From assembly GCF_009859475.1 (NCBI RefSeq), contig NZ_CP044549.1, positions 2,728,001 to 2,792,000 on the forward strand: a stretch of 64,000 nt of DNA. The letters are read 5' to 3'. The stretch is from Hydrogenophaga sp. BPS33. GTDB taxonomy: Bacteria > Pseudomonadota > Gammaproteobacteria > Burkholderiales > Burkholderiaceae_C. The notes under the pieces were generated by a model, which had not been told where the DNA came from, ran no database searches, and saw only the letters and a list, made by a program, of their open reading frames with translations. A program made the translations under genes and the position numbers. Below are positions 20,782-23,821 of this stretch, piece after piece. Within the stretch, counting starts at the first letter, position 1. Every line of letters begins with the position of its first letter.

Positions 20782-21555
20782 ATGCCCGTGACACTTCATG
20801 TTCGAGACTTCGTGGCCACCATCACGCTCGACCGGCCCGAGGCGATGAATGCCATCGATCCCGAATCCAGCGCACAGCTGGTCGAGGCGTGGGCCGAGGT
20901 CTCGTCCCGCGACGACATCCGGGTGGCCGTTGTGACCGGCGCAGGGGAGCGGGCCTTTTGCACCGGCGCCGATCTCAAGAAGACCATGCCACCGGCGGCG
21001 TCGTTTGCGCAGTTGCACTACGGGTCGACCAAGCCACCTTCTGTGGCCACATTGCAGACCGACAAACCCCTCATCGCCGCCATCAACGGGTACTGCCTGG
21101 GAGGCGGGCTCGAACTGGCACTCATGTGCGACGTGCGCATCGCCTCCAGCACGGCCACCTTCGGCTTGCCCGAGGTCGCCATTGGCAGCATTCCTGGCGG
21201 GGGCGGCACGCAGCGCCTCGTGAGGGCGGTGGGCCAGTCCGATGCCATGTTGATGCTGTTGTCCGGCGAAAGAACGGATGCCGCTGAGGCGTTGCGCATC
21301 GGCCTCGTGAGCCGTGTGGTGGCTGCGGATGCGCTGATGGCCGAGGCGCAGAAGATCGCGCAGCGGATCGCATCCAATGCGCCCCTGGCGGTGGTGGCGG
21401 TGAAACGGTTGGCCATGCAGGGCGGGGAGTTGTCGCTGGCCGCCGGGCTGGAGCTGGAGCAGCAAGCCTTCGGTATTCTTCGCGACAGTGAGGATCGGTT
21501 GGAAGGGCGGCGCGCGTTCGCGGAAAAGCGGCCTGCGCAGTTCAAGGGGCGCTGA
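20782..21555 (+). CDS. Enoyl-CoA hydratase/isomerase family protein
   Basis: A 257-residue crotonase. The oxyanion-hole loop GAGERAFCTGADLK and both catalytic glutamate positions of enoyl-CoA hydratase are kept: GYCLGGGLELALMCDV (Glu in GGGLE) and FGLPEVAIGSIPGGGGTQRL (Glu in LPEV). Hydration of an enoyl-CoA is therefore likely. It is the last gene of the operon starting at 16176; the 182 bases after it hold no gene. Confidence 0.9.
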   Translation: MPVTLHVRDFVATITLDRPEAMNAIDPESSAQLVEAWAEVSSRDDIRVAVVTGAGERAFCTGADLKKTMPPAASFAQLHYGSTKPPSVATLQTDKPLIAAINGYCLGGGLELALMCDVRIASSTATFGLPEVAIGSIPGGGGTQRLVRAVGQSDAMLMLLSGERTDAAEALRIGLVSRVVAADALMAEAQKIAQRIASNAPLAVVAVKRLAMQGGELSLAAGLELEQQAFGILRDSEDRLEGRRAFAEKRPAQFKGR

Positions 21556-21625
21556 GAGCTTTGCCTTGTCGGCTGGCCCGGATCATCGAGCGCAGTGGTC
21601 ATGTGCAGCTCGCAGGGTGCGGAGC

Positions 21626-21642
21626 TAGACTTCGGCTTTCGG
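21626..21642. repeat. Left 17-bp inverted repeat of the aac(6')-kinase segment
   Basis: TAGACTTCGGCTTTCGG, the exact reverse complement of 22976-22992. The pair encloses 1.37 kb with the acetyltransferase and kinase genes. No transposase or integrase is inside. Confidence 0.75.
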
Positions 21643-21737
21643 TCACTGGCAGAGATACGACTTGCGCTGGACTATGTCACGTCGCACACGAGCATCTCTT
21701 TCAGATGGACCGCCCGACTTGTTTGAGCTAGCTGCAT

Positions 21738-22304
21738 ATGCCTTTGACATCACACCGTGTCGTTCTGCGTCTCATGACGGCAGGGGATTTGCCCATGCTT
21801 CACGAGTGGCTGAACCGTCCCCATATCGTCGAGTGGTGGGGCGGCGACGAAAACCGACCTTCCCTTGAGGACGTGCAGCGGGACTACATGCCCGAGCACC
21901 TGGCCCGGGAAAACACGACGGCGTACATCGCCCTGCTGGACGGCGAACCGATGGGTTACGCACAGTCGTATGTCGCGATGGGAAGCGGTGGCGGTTGGTG
22001 GGAAGCGGAGACCGACCCAGGCGTGCGAGGGATAGACCAATCGCTGGCCGATTCAGAGCAACTGGGCAAAGGGCTGGGCACCTTGCTGGTTTGTGCACTG
22101 ACCGAACTGTTGTTTGCCGATCCGTCCGTCACGAAAATTCAAACGGACCCGGCGCCCGAAAACCATCGAGCGATCCGTTGCTACGAGAAGGCGGGCTTTG
22201 TTCGGCAGGGCACTATTACTACGCCCGACGGTCCTGCGGTCTACATGGTGCAGACAAGACGAGATTTTGAGCGAGCACGCGGTGCGGCCTTGCTCGCACC
22301 TTGA
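21738..22304 (+). CDS. Aminoglycoside 6'-N-acetyltransferase, AAC(6')-Ib-like
   Basis: A 188-residue GNAT acetyltransferase that closely resembles the AAC(6')-Ib group as I remember it. The shared segments run through the whole protein: EWLNR then HIVEWWGG, GYAQSYVA, ETDPGVRGIDQSLA, QLGKGLGT, KIQTDP, RAIRCYEKAGF, TTPDGPAVYMVQTR. Enzymes of this type acetylate the 6'-amino group of tobramycin, amikacin and kanamycin, causing resistance. The gene is not in an evident integron cassette: I see no attC site or intI. It shares a 17-bp inverted-repeat-bounded segment with a P-loop kinase, and base composition here seems lower in GC than in the flanking operons. Activity is inferred, not shown. Confidence 0.85.
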   Translation: MPLTSHRVVLRLMTAGDLPMLHEWLNRPHIVEWWGGDENRPSLEDVQRDYMPEHLARENTTAYIALLDGEPMGYAQSYVAMGSGGGWWEAETDPGVRGIDQSLADSEQLGKGLGTLLVCALTELLFADPSVTKIQTDPAPENHRAIRCYEKAGFVRQGTITTPDGPAVYMVQTRRDFERARGAALLAP

Positions 22305-22393
22305 GTCAAAGCTTTGATGGTTTGAACTTCCGCTTTGGGCCCCAAGCTGTCTTCTGCCCCTGGCTACGACGCCATACGAAAATCCAGTTTTCA

Positions 22394-22930
22394 ATGAATC
22401 AGGCGAATGAAATCCTCGTTCTTACCGGTGCTCCTGGCGCAGGAAAAACGACCACATCCAAGGCGCTAGCAGCGACATCAGGCTCGCCCAAGGTACATCT
22501 TCATTGCGACGACTTCTGGCACTTCATCAAGCACGGAGCGATCCCTCCCTTTCTGAAATCGGCGCACAAACAAAACGATACGGTCGTGAAGGTGCTGGCC
22601 CAGGCGGCGGAGGGCTATGCGAAGGGAGGTTACTTTGTGATCGTGGATGGCGTCGTCGGGCCCTGGTTTCTAGACGCCTTCACTGGACTTTCGGCGCGCC
22701 TTCACTACATCGTGCTTCAGATCGACGTCGAAAGCGCAATTGCGCGATGCCAAGCTCGTGGTGGCGACACACTTACCGACGCGAAAGTTATTGCATCCCT
22801 GCATCACCAGTTGTCATCCCTTGGGGTGCTGAGCAAGCATGTACTGGACGTACGAGGCCTGTCGCCAGAACTCACATTGGCTGCCGTGGTTGGCGCAGTT
22901 GAAAGCGAAATGTTTCTTCTGAAGGCCTAA
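22394..22930 (+). CDS. P-loop kinase-like NTPase (AAA/zeta/CPT-like)
   Basis: A 178-residue P-loop protein with Walker A GAPGAGKTT at residues 12-20, an LHCDDFWHFIK segment like the lid/substrate Asp of small-molecule kinases, and a Walker-B-like FVIVDGVVG. It resembles chloramphenicol-phosphotransferase/gluconate-kinase-like families found beside resistance genes, but the substrate is unknown. The ATG at 22394 was chosen because the P-loop then lies at the usual N-terminal position. It lies 89 bases after the acetyltransferase gene on the same strand. Confidence 0.7.
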   Translation: MNQANEILVLTGAPGAGKTTTSKALAATSGSPKVHLHCDDFWHFIKHGAIPPFLKSAHKQNDTVVKVLAQAAEGYAKGGYFVIVDGVVGPWFLDAFTGLSARLHYIVLQIDVESAIARCQARGGDTLTDAKVIASLHHQLSSLGVLSKHVLDVRGLSPELTLAAVVGAVESEMFLLKA

Positions 22931-22975
22931 GCGTCTGAGTTGTCACCGCCGTGGTTGAGGAGAGTCCGCTTCTGG

Positions 22976-22992
22976 CCGAAAGCCGAAGTCTA
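22976..22992. repeat. Right 17-bp inverted repeat of the aac(6')-kinase segment
   Basis: CCGAAAGCCGAAGTCTA, exact reverse complement of 21626-21642. It lies within a longer run beginning GCTTCTGGCCGAAAGC (22968-22983), which recurs with one change at 24045-24060. Confidence 0.75.
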
Positions 22993-23036
22993 CGTCGCCG
23001 GGTGGCGGGAAGGTGAGGCACCATTCACCGCAAGCC

Positions 23037-23489
23037 TCACGCCGTTGCGATCGACTCCGTATAGATGAAGCTATCGCAAGCAGCCACGAAAGGCCTCGGC
23101 GTCTGCCGCCCGCCAAAGCCATACACCCGCAGGCCCTCGCGCCGGATGCAGTAGGCCAGTGGTGTGAGATCGCTGTCGGACGACGCAATGCAGACACCAT
23201 CGAACTGGCCCGTGTTCACGAGTTCCATCGCCTCCAGGCTGAGCATGATGTCGGCGGCGTTCTTACCCTTGGTGTACGGGAACAGCTGCACCGGCTCAAT
23301 CGCGTTGTGCAGCAACACGCTGCGCATGCGGCTCATACCCGGCAGTGACCAGTCGCCGTATGCGCGCTTCACGGTGAGCACGCCATAGTTGGCTGCGCGT
23401 TGCAGGATGGGGCGGGTGAGGGTGTAAGAGATATTGGCCGAGTCGAATAACACGGCGAGCCTCTGTTGCTTGTGCTGCAGTCGGGTCAT
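23037..23489 (-). CDS. NYN (PIN-like) domain protein
   Basis: A 150-residue stand-alone NYN domain. The acidic nuclease-like positions are visible in VLFDSANIS, KGKNAADIML and IASSDSDLTPL, followed by a REGLRVYGFGGRQTPRPF strand. NYN domains are predicted metal-dependent ribonucleases of the PIN fold. The LOTUS/OST-HTH tail common in longer relatives is absent. The start MTRLQHKQQR was chosen because upstream codons cross a strong hairpin and lack family similarity. A degraded piece of a second copy lies at 13636-13706. Confidence 0.78.
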   Translation of the reverse strand: MTRLQHKQQRLAVLFDSANISYTLTRPILQRAANYGVLTVKRAYGDWSLPGMSRMRSVLLHNAIEPVQLFPYTKGKNAADIMLSLEAMELVNTGQFDGVCIASSDSDLTPLAYCIRREGLRVYGFGGRQTPRPFVAACDSFIYTESIATA

Positions 23490-23525
23490 GCTGCGCCTTC
23501 CCTGGTCGTTCGGTGTGATGGACTG

Positions 23526-23725
23526 CCGCCGCCACGTGACAGAGTGGCGGCGGCCCGAACGGGTTGAGAACCGGTGACCTCTTGCGAAAGCCGGCAGGCC
23601 TTGCGACCTCCCGCCCGAGCCGCCAAAAGCATGCACGAACGAAGAAGGCCACTATTCAAGCGGTTCATAGCGGCCTTCAGGCCGCAACAGGTCAACGGGT
23701 TCTCAAGCCCGGCTCACCTTTTGCG
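23526..23725. repeat. Hairpins and an imperfect direct repeat in a gene-free stretch
   Basis: CCGCCGCCAC (23526-23535) pairs with GTGGCGGCGG (23544-23553), and GCGGCC/GGCCGC pair around TTCA near 23670-23685. An imperfect direct repeat of about 30 bases occurs at 23558-23586 and 23694-23725; both copies begin AACGGGTT and end TTGCG. The stretch 23490-23821 holds no gene. It may be the trace of recombination at this variable site. Confidence 0.5.
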
Positions 23726-23821
23726 TGAGTGGCGCAGACTTTACCTCAACGCGTGGGCTGTGCGCATCTTGGAACCTCAAGAGAGGGATGTTCCCATTGC
23801 TGCGCGATCCTGTTGCGTGCC

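What the first reader, a model, noticed from the sequence alone, without database searches (positions are those of the whole stretch)
21738..22304. Chromosomal AAC(6')-Ib-like gene outside an integron
The 188-residue product shares most of the diagnostic segments of AAC(6')-Ib in the same order (HIVEWWGG, ETDPGVRGIDQSLA, QLGKGLGT, RAIRCYEKAGF, TTPDGPAVYMVQTR). That group is usually known from integron cassettes, but no attC-like site or intI is visible here. It could be an environmental relative of, or progenitor for, the mobile gene. Segment matching is from memory; the degree of identity was not computed.
Basis: partly seen in the sequence, partly recalled or inferred. Interest (0 to 1): 0.8.

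Follow-up and report, generated by a model that had tools for sequence, protein, structure and literature searches.

The report
Chromosomal cousin of hospital resistance gene
An environmental Hydrogenophaga bacterium carries on its chromosome a stationary relative of the aminoglycoside resistance genes that circulate in hospitals, and its wider family suggests that one of the commonest of those genes was packaged for travel in the chromosomal gene-capture arrays of related environmental bacteria.

Summary
21738-22304 (+) is an intact 188-residue AacA4-family aminoglycoside 6'-N-acetyltransferase: 338.6 bits (cut-off 260), but 314.7 of the 400 needed for AAC(6')-Ib. It is 72.8% identical to Ib and to IIa. 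No attC lies beside it and no integrase over the cut-off exists in its 6.77 Mb Hydrogenophaga genome.

It is not the progenitor of Ib. It is an unmobilised branch of a family carried without integrons, mostly by Burkholderiales, in which the class 1 cassettes Ib, 31, IIa and IIc are nested. Its Q118-S119 suggests gentamicin rather than amikacin.

A stronger lead came from the family. The closest relative of Ib held outside class 1 integrons (84.6%) sits in a large chromosomal integron of Piscinibacter (Rhizobacter) gummiphilus. The clinical aac(6')-Ib attC is 72/72 identical to an attC in the chromosomal integron of a Rhizobacter sp.. That attC type fills arrays in this genus and was found in 2 of 398 genomes sampled across Pseudomonadota. 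Ib probably became a cassette in Rhizobacter-like integrons. Everything here is computed; nothing was assayed.

The parts
21738..22304 (+). AacA4-family aminoglycoside 6'-N-acetyltransferase gene, 188 aa, AAC(6')-Ib/II group, Q118-S119 type
22394..22930 (+). small P-loop (AAA / chloramphenicol-phosphotransferase-like / zeta-toxin-like) protein gene just downstream; low GC3 (0.598); an 87.5% copy stands without the aac gene in another Hydrogenophaga (G458)
21626..21645 (+). left arm of a 20-nt inverted repeat (19 of 20) enclosing aac and the P-loop gene; function unknown
22973..22992 (-). right arm of the same inverted repeat; the shared 18-mer occurs only at these two places in the 6.77 Mb genome
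20782..21555 (+). upstream flank: enoyl-CoA hydratase gene, GC3 0.818 (like the two genes before it), at the left edge of the low-GC stretch

Best explanation
The gene encodes a working acetyl-CoA-dependent aminoglycoside 6'-N-acetyltransferase of the AacA4 family, carried as a single stationary gene on a Hydrogenophaga chromosome. Its likely effect is protection against 2-deoxystreptamine aminoglycosides with a free 6'-amino group, with an AAC(6')-II-like range (gentamicin, tobramycin, kanamycin rather than amikacin). It entered this lineage horizontally with a neighbouring P-loop gene in a low-GC stretch (about 21.6-23.0 kb), not by integron capture. It is a side branch, not the source, of the clinical cassettes: those arose from the same family, Ib and 31 most likely through Rhizobacter/Piscinibacter-type chromosomal integrons, IIa and IIc probably by separate captures. 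Shown: sequence membership, intact frame, absence of attC and intI, low GC, patchy distribution, tree, attC match. Inferred: enzyme activity, substrate range, route of arrival.
For: Family cut-offs passed for AacA4 and AAC_6p_set_A; solved AAC(6')-Ib matched over residues 6-182 at E 5.4e-89. No attC; 0 of 51 non-integron relatives against 32 of 33 cassette relatives have an attC-like score of 12.5 or more near the gene. No integrase over cut-off in the host. GC3 0.667 against 0.81-0.82 for the three upstream genes. Present at E<1e-30 in 3 of 36 same-genus genomes, window included; the four Hydrogenophaga rows of the tree are not one clade (AU p 0.013). Cassettes nested: all held as one clade rejected, p 0.022 for 11 rows with the Piscinibacter row (60-row tree), p 0.0007 for the 10 class 1 rows (66-row tree); the attC types of Ib/31, IIa and IIc differ. 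Two Variovorax loci (L054, L056) are collinear over 10.7 kb at 96% with the gene inside, which shows chromosomal residence elsewhere in the family.
Against: No activity or resistance has been measured. The branches around the window are unresolved (open fork in clades of 22 and 25 rows), so its nearest kin is not settled. Family models are named after resistance genes and cannot prove the natural substrate. No sigma-70 promoter-like site was found in 21500-23100, so expression is open. That the stretch is horizontally acquired rests on GC and patchiness; no empty site was seen.
Confidence: 0.75

Rival explanations
1. The window gene is a former integron cassette that was inserted into the Hydrogenophaga chromosome and lost its attC.
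For: Its closest kin include cassettes and the order of branching around it is unresolved; GC3 is low; the enclosing 20-nt inverted repeat suggests sharp borders; the Acidovorax kalamii gene has a lone GTTGGGC core-like sequence just upstream of its start (seen in the print).
Against: No attC above background near the gene; integrase absent; the Rhizobacter-type half-site occurs 0 times in the host genome; the inverted repeat shows no attC core consensus (by eye).
Confidence: 0.2
2. It is the environmental progenitor of the mobile AAC(6')-Ib.
For: Same family, chromosomal, environmental host genus.
Against: 72.8% to Ib, against 84.6% protein and 82.4% DNA identity for Piscinibacter gummiphilus; P. 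gummiphilus + Ib grouped with 100/96 support and the window outside; no attC half-site of the Ib type in the host genome.
Confidence: 0.03
3. It is a metabolic or cell-wall acetyltransferase whose natural substrate is not an aminoglycoside drug; drug acetylation is incidental or absent.
For: The family is old in Burkholderiales: relatives at 47-65% stand in contigs without integron marks, and pairs of Variovorax and of Polaromonas loci share flanking DNA, unlike a recent drug-selected gene.
Against: The window protein lies in the same starred clade as the clinical enzymes and passes the AacA4 equivalog cut-off by 79 bits.
Confidence: 0.2

Closest known systems
AAC(6')-Ib / Ib' (aacA4 cassette of class 1 integrons)
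   Same: Same family, 72.8% identity, same motifs; Q118-S119 as in Ib'
   Different: Below the Ib model cut-off (314.7 against 400); no attC, no integron; separate branch
AAC(6')-IIa
   Same: 72.8% identity, S119 type
   Different: IIa is a cassette with a 60-nt attC of another type
AacA4-like gene of Acidovorax kalamii (L007)
   Same: Best held relative, 74.5%, no attC above background
   Different: Groups with AAC(6')-31 (94/82), to which it is 85.9% identical
AacA4-like gene in the chromosomal integron of Piscinibacter (Rhizobacter) gummiphilus (L100)
   Same: Same family, 70.3% identity to the window, Q118-S119
   Different: It is a cassette in an array with 130 full attC sites in 95.5 kb and an intI of 477 bits; sister of Ib
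dfrB trimethoprim resistance genes (PMC11662351; abstract and passages seen)
   Same: Also a resistance family whose non-integron members were attributed to Burkholderiales, with mobile ones in class 1 integrons
   Different: Unrelated protein; the main text has 0 occurrences of aac, Piscinibacter and Rhizobacter

Membership tests
AacA4 family aminoglycoside N(6')-acetyltransferase (TIGR04431) | Score at or over the curated cut-off of 260 bits, full length | tested here: met
   338.6 bits, residues 2-184 on profile 2-184
AacA4 family aminoglycoside N(6')-acetyltransferase (TIGR04431) | Acetylates the 6'-amino group of aminoglycosides | not testable with these tools
   needs an enzyme assay
AAC(6')-Ib proper (NF033074) | Score at or over 400 bits | tested here: not met
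   314.7 bits; a class 1 Ib gene (L008) scores 427.6
AAC(6')-IIc, -31, AacA40 (NF000135, NF000118, NF000048) | Scores at or over 415, 385 and 400 bits | tested here: not met
   293.8, 299.5 and 313.3 bits
AAC(6')-II substrate profile | Serine at position 119 (Ib numbering) | tested here: met
   GIDQS in the window; meaning of the residue from PMC3656343
AAC(6')-II substrate profile | Gentamicin acetylated, amikacin not | not testable with these tools
   needs an assay
Integron gene cassette | attC directly downstream of the gene | tested here: not met
   best score 9.5 in 21300-23200; cassette relatives 32 of 33 at 12.5 or more
Integron gene cassette | Integron integrase in the genome | tested here: not met
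   best 84.5 bits against cut-off 265 in G000; none at E<=1e-30

The most novel reading that the evidence does not exclude
The mobile AAC(6')-Ib and AAC(6')-31 cassettes, including the quinolone-acetylating Ib-cr, were assembled in chromosomal integrons of the Rhizobacter/Piscinibacter group from an old Burkholderiales acetyltransferase family, and IIa and IIc were drawn from the same family by separate captures. The window gene is a member that was never captured. The traces are a 72/72 identical attC and a sister gene still sitting in such an array.
Probability: 0.6. Interest if true: 0.82.

Novelty: new member of a known kind. Interest (0 to 1): 0.62.

Why it matters
Genes of this family at 60-80% identity to the window protein stand in 3669 of 72,556 plasmid records searched, most of the listed ones named Ib, Ib-cr, IIa or IIc. 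The review read here leaves it open whether AAC(6') enzymes share one origin (PMC3656343, passages). The attC survey of 2021 assigned 29 of 108 resistance cassettes to a source taxon; its Table 1 lists no aacA4 (PMC8352920 section 7). If the present reading is right, a source group (Rhizobacter/Piscinibacter), a source structure (chromosomal integrons with attC sites of 69-72 nt) and the non-mobile family around it are named, so the question can be tested by sequencing a few genera. The window gene itself matters modestly: a non-mobile, probably gentamicin-type acetyltransferase in an environmental bacterium.

Tried and rejected
First attC scan (strict complement of the outer arms) missed many known cassettes and the Piscinibacter site; it was replaced by a scorer tried on known cassettes and on ten base-shuffled copies of the first 20 kb of the window (none at 14 or more).

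Tested the repeats around the locus as a possible cassette or hairpin system. The 20-nt inverted repeat's 18-mer is unique to the locus, but the looser motif with up to 3 mismatches has 3 places in the genome, one of them elsewhere, against 1 for the reversed control. The three stretches folded do not fold better than shuffled DNA. In the loci held then, the motif (2 mismatches) matched outside the host only inside the coding part of L035; with 3 mismatches also in L034 (coding) and L148. It is absent around the other P-loop copy, L145. Left unexplained.

Considered that the P-loop gene 22394-22930 moves with aac: in G458 it stands without aac. Rejected as a conserved pair.

Considered one common origin for all cassettes: rejected at p 0.022 (11 rows) and 0.0007 (10 rows), the former only mildly. 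Ib + 31 + P. gummiphilus as one clade is not rejected (p 0.60) and its best tree is even slightly likelier than the free one, so Acidovorax kalamii may fall outside.

The first tree had six distant rows, one misplaced inside (L004), and its bootstrap had not settled; rebuilt without L004, L059, L062, L063, L067 and L118. Rows identical in sequence were merged, and duplicates between collections (L001, L002, L095, L097, L098, L102, L112) and three contig-end fragments (L041, L058, L061) were left out of the trees.

A search for the half-site in the phylum contained no genome of the P. gummiphilus genus, so it shows rarity outside the family, not the contrast within it; searches show that.

Full report
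OBSERVATION. The ORF at 21738-22304 (+) is intact and 188 aa long. NCBIfam scores it 338.6 bits as AacA4-family aminoglycoside N(6')-acetyltransferase (cut-off 260) and 329.9 bits on AAC_6p_set_A (cut-off 280). The four nearest clinical subfamily models stay below their own cut-offs: Ib 314.7 of 400, A40 313.3 of 400, 31 299.5 of 385, IIc 293.8 of 415. The nearest solved structures are AAC(6')-Ib and Ib11 (E about 1e-88). Identity by alignment is 72.8% to Ib, 72.8% to IIa, 72.3% to 31, 66.0% to IIc and 74.5% to the Acidovorax kalamii protein. Of 2251 proteins with E<=1e-20, the best 120 were listed; apart from the protein itself none of these exceeded 77% identity.

HOST AND PLACE. The window lies on a 6.3 Mb contig of a 6.77 Mb genome. 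The gene stands between an enoyl-CoA hydratase gene and a small P-loop gene of the AAA/CPT/zeta kind. GC3 is 0.667 for aac and 0.598 for the P-loop gene, against 0.81-0.82 for the three genes upstream and 0.81-0.86 for the three examined downstream. A 20-nt inverted repeat, 19 of 20 complementary, encloses 21626-22992; its 18-mer core occurs once in each orientation in the whole genome, its reversed control 0 times. In 36 same-genus genomes (own included) 3 have a relative at E<1e-30, and the four Hydrogenophaga rows of the tree (window, L003, L034, L035) are not one clade (AU p 0.013). The gene is therefore accessory, probably acquired, and shows no sign of an integron.

NO INTEGRON, TESTED. 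I wrote an attC scorer (core boxes, arm complementarity, inner stem). On ten base-shuffled copies of the first 20 kb of the window it gave 0.9 hits per 20 kb at 12, 0.3 at 13 and none at 14; the attC sites beside aac genes in eight known class 1 loci scored 12.5-19.5. Around the window gene the best score is 9.5; in the full 64 kb, both strands, nine places score 12-13 and none more. Near the gene, 0 of 51 non-integron loci reach 12.5 (1 of 51, L034, reaches 12), against 32 of 33 cassette loci, the miss being L011. These are all loci with at least 45% identity, after removal of four duplicates and the window's own locus; the 33 still hold two loci twice (L097 = L008, L098 = L009). A locus counted as cassette if it bore integron or cassette markers or encoded a protein row identical to that of a marked locus; L100 was added because of its array. 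The host's best integrase_gron match is 84.5 bits, under the cut-off of 265.

THE FAMILY AROUND IT. A scan of one genome per species gave 147 relatives, of which 80 were kept. Of the 29 non-integron loci in that set with at least 45% identity, my count from the record titles is 22 in Betaproteobacteria/Burkholderiales, 5 elsewhere (two Granulosicoccaceae, one Stagnimonas, two cyanobacteria) and 2 titled only Pseudomonadota. In the GTDB family of the host, 30 of 399 genomes (22 of 141 genera) have a match at E<=1e-30; 5 of these 30 are integron cases (G186, G283, G288, G313 and the chromosomal integron G400), leaving 25, the window's included. Two Variovorax loci (L054, L056) are collinear over 10.7 kb at 96% with the gene inside; L055 and L056 over 6.9 and 3.2 kb at 95%; L052 matches them in collinear pieces at 83-93%; Polaromonas L053 and L057 share pieces on both sides at 79-91%. 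Ramlibacter L045 and L046, and the window against L034, match in the gene alone, so residence is stable in some genera only.

THE TREE. With 66 rows and again with 60 the class 1 cassettes are nested among non-integron genes. Holding the 10 class 1 rows together is rejected (p 0.0007); holding 11 rows, the P. gummiphilus chromosomal cassette added, is rejected more mildly (p 0.022). Ib, 31 and P. gummiphilus together are not rejected (p 0.60). Ib is sister to P. gummiphilus at 100/96, and 31 is next to Acidovorax kalamii at 94/82 (99/97 and 83/81). The window sits in an unresolved fork within a starred clade of 25 rows (96/90), 14 non-cassette and 11 cassette. It is a side branch, not an ancestor. 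The attC sites agree with more than one capture: Ib and 31 share one type (93% identical), IIa has a 60-nt and IIc a 70-nt site of other types.

WHERE IB BECAME A CASSETTE. L100 lies at 3961327-3961872 of the G400 chromosome. A full-length intI (477 bits) stands at the head of an array in which 131 attC half-sites, 130 of them full sites, were found in the 95.5 kb fetched. The clinical Ib attC is 91% identical to the attC beside L100, and 93% at best to any full site in G400. In G269, tied to 'MAG: Rhizobacter sp.' by P0169, one of 210 full sites fetched is identical to the clinical Ib attC over 72 of 72 bases. That cassette encodes a different GNAT protein, so the match is in the recombination site, not the gene. 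Controls: IIa, IIc and 13 other class 1 attC sites reach 52-65% at best against the same arrays, while 31 reaches 93%; the 13 include four copies of one GES cassette and the IIa site once more, and six of them are 110-112 nt long, which lowers their identity. The half-site CTCATGTCAAACGTTRG occurs in 53 of 399 family genomes, mostly in few copies, with 20 or more in G269 (230), G400 (139), G155 (31), G255 (29) and G232 (20); in 9 of 11 genomes of the P. gummiphilus genus; and in 2 of 398 genomes drawn across the phylum, one copy each, both of the host's family, of which the sample held 12; one of the two is the class 1 aac cassette of G186. The reversed pattern gave 0. The window genome has 0 copies.

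LIMITS OF THAT INFERENCE. An attC tells where a cassette was last at home, not where the gene first arose. P. gummiphilus is 15% away from Ib in protein, so it is not the immediate source. Of 11 genomes of the genus, G400 alone has the close relative; three (G269, G482, G484) have 50-53% relatives without attC beside them, and seven have none at E<=1e-20. G269 is a metagenome-assembled genome. The few copies of the half-site in many family genomes are partly class 1 insertions (e.g. G186, G283, G313) and were not separated. One published survey places 54.2% of acetyltransferase attC sites in a marine clade (PMC8352920, passages and section 7 seen); its Table 1 does not list aacA4, and I did not see whether its Figure 2 contains it.

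FUNCTION. Inferred by homology: acetyl transfer to the 6'-amino group of aminoglycosides. The window reads GIDQS, Q118-S119. A review (PMC3656343, passages seen) reports that serine at 119 in Ib' gives the AAC(6')-II range, gentamicin but not amikacin. Of the 10 class 1 rows, 8 read QS and 2 read QL; of the 56 other rows (six distant rows included) 26 read QS, 20 QF, 4 other pairs starting with L, 6 gave no match, and none reads QL. Against six relatives pN is 0.17-0.21 and pS 0.69-0.78 (dS saturated), as under purifying selection. No sigma-70-like promoter was found in 21500-23100.

IN PRINT? Twelve paper searches were sent; two returned errors and ten ran. Judged by the listed titles and abstract openings (one search listed 20 of 40, one search listed 20 of 46), none derives aac(6')-Ib from Burkholderiales chromosomes or Rhizobacter-type integrons. 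Passages were also seen of PMC7782503 (part of its table of confirmed origins, which names AAC(6')-Ih) and PMC10400643. The library holds only open-licence papers, and the gene's usual name could not be searched because of its signs, so this is weak evidence of novelty.

Noticed in passing
window 23037-23748 (-): A NYN-domain gene with a C4 antisense RNA (Rfam RF01695, 50.7 bits) just upstream; the block of about 700 nt recurs at four more places in the host genome at 75-86% and at four listed places in G011 at 70-78%. The upstream RNA folds consistently in 7 copies, 15 of 76 predicted pairs with a compensated change. C4 RNAs are known to me (recalled) from phage P1/P4 immunity; the pairing with a NYN nuclease-like gene is worth a look.
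   Followed up: partly
window 21626-21645 and 22973-22992; related motifs at 22328 and 24041: 20-nt inverted repeat around the aac and P-loop genes, its 18-mer core unique in the genome, with two looser relatives close by. No mechanism found.
   Followed up: partly
L168-L172 (G400), L173-L179 (G269): Very large chromosomal integrons in the Rhizobacter/Piscinibacter genus: 139 and 230 attC half-sites of one type in the two genomes.
   Followed up: partly
L176:1478-2062 (-): A GNAT acetyltransferase (relatives named RimJ/RimL family) in a chromosomal cassette whose attC is identical over 72 bases to that of a clinical aac(6')-Ib cassette.
   Followed up: yes
L027, L015, L018: Class 1 integron markers with aac(6')-Ib or IIa-type genes in records titled Rothia, Corynebacterium and Pseudoglutamicibacter, Gram-positive genera; L015 and L018 are small contigs and could be contamination, L027 is titled a complete chromosome.
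   Followed up: no
L049, L050: Relatives in cyanobacterial records (Oculatella 53%, a Synechococcales MAG 71%) without integron marks; transfer or misbinning not examined.
   Followed up: no
L007, upstream of 6001: The Acidovorax kalamii gene, next to AAC(6')-31 in the tree, has a GTTGGGC core-like heptamer just before its start but no attC-like score above 10 nearby; it might be a former cassette.
   Followed up: partly
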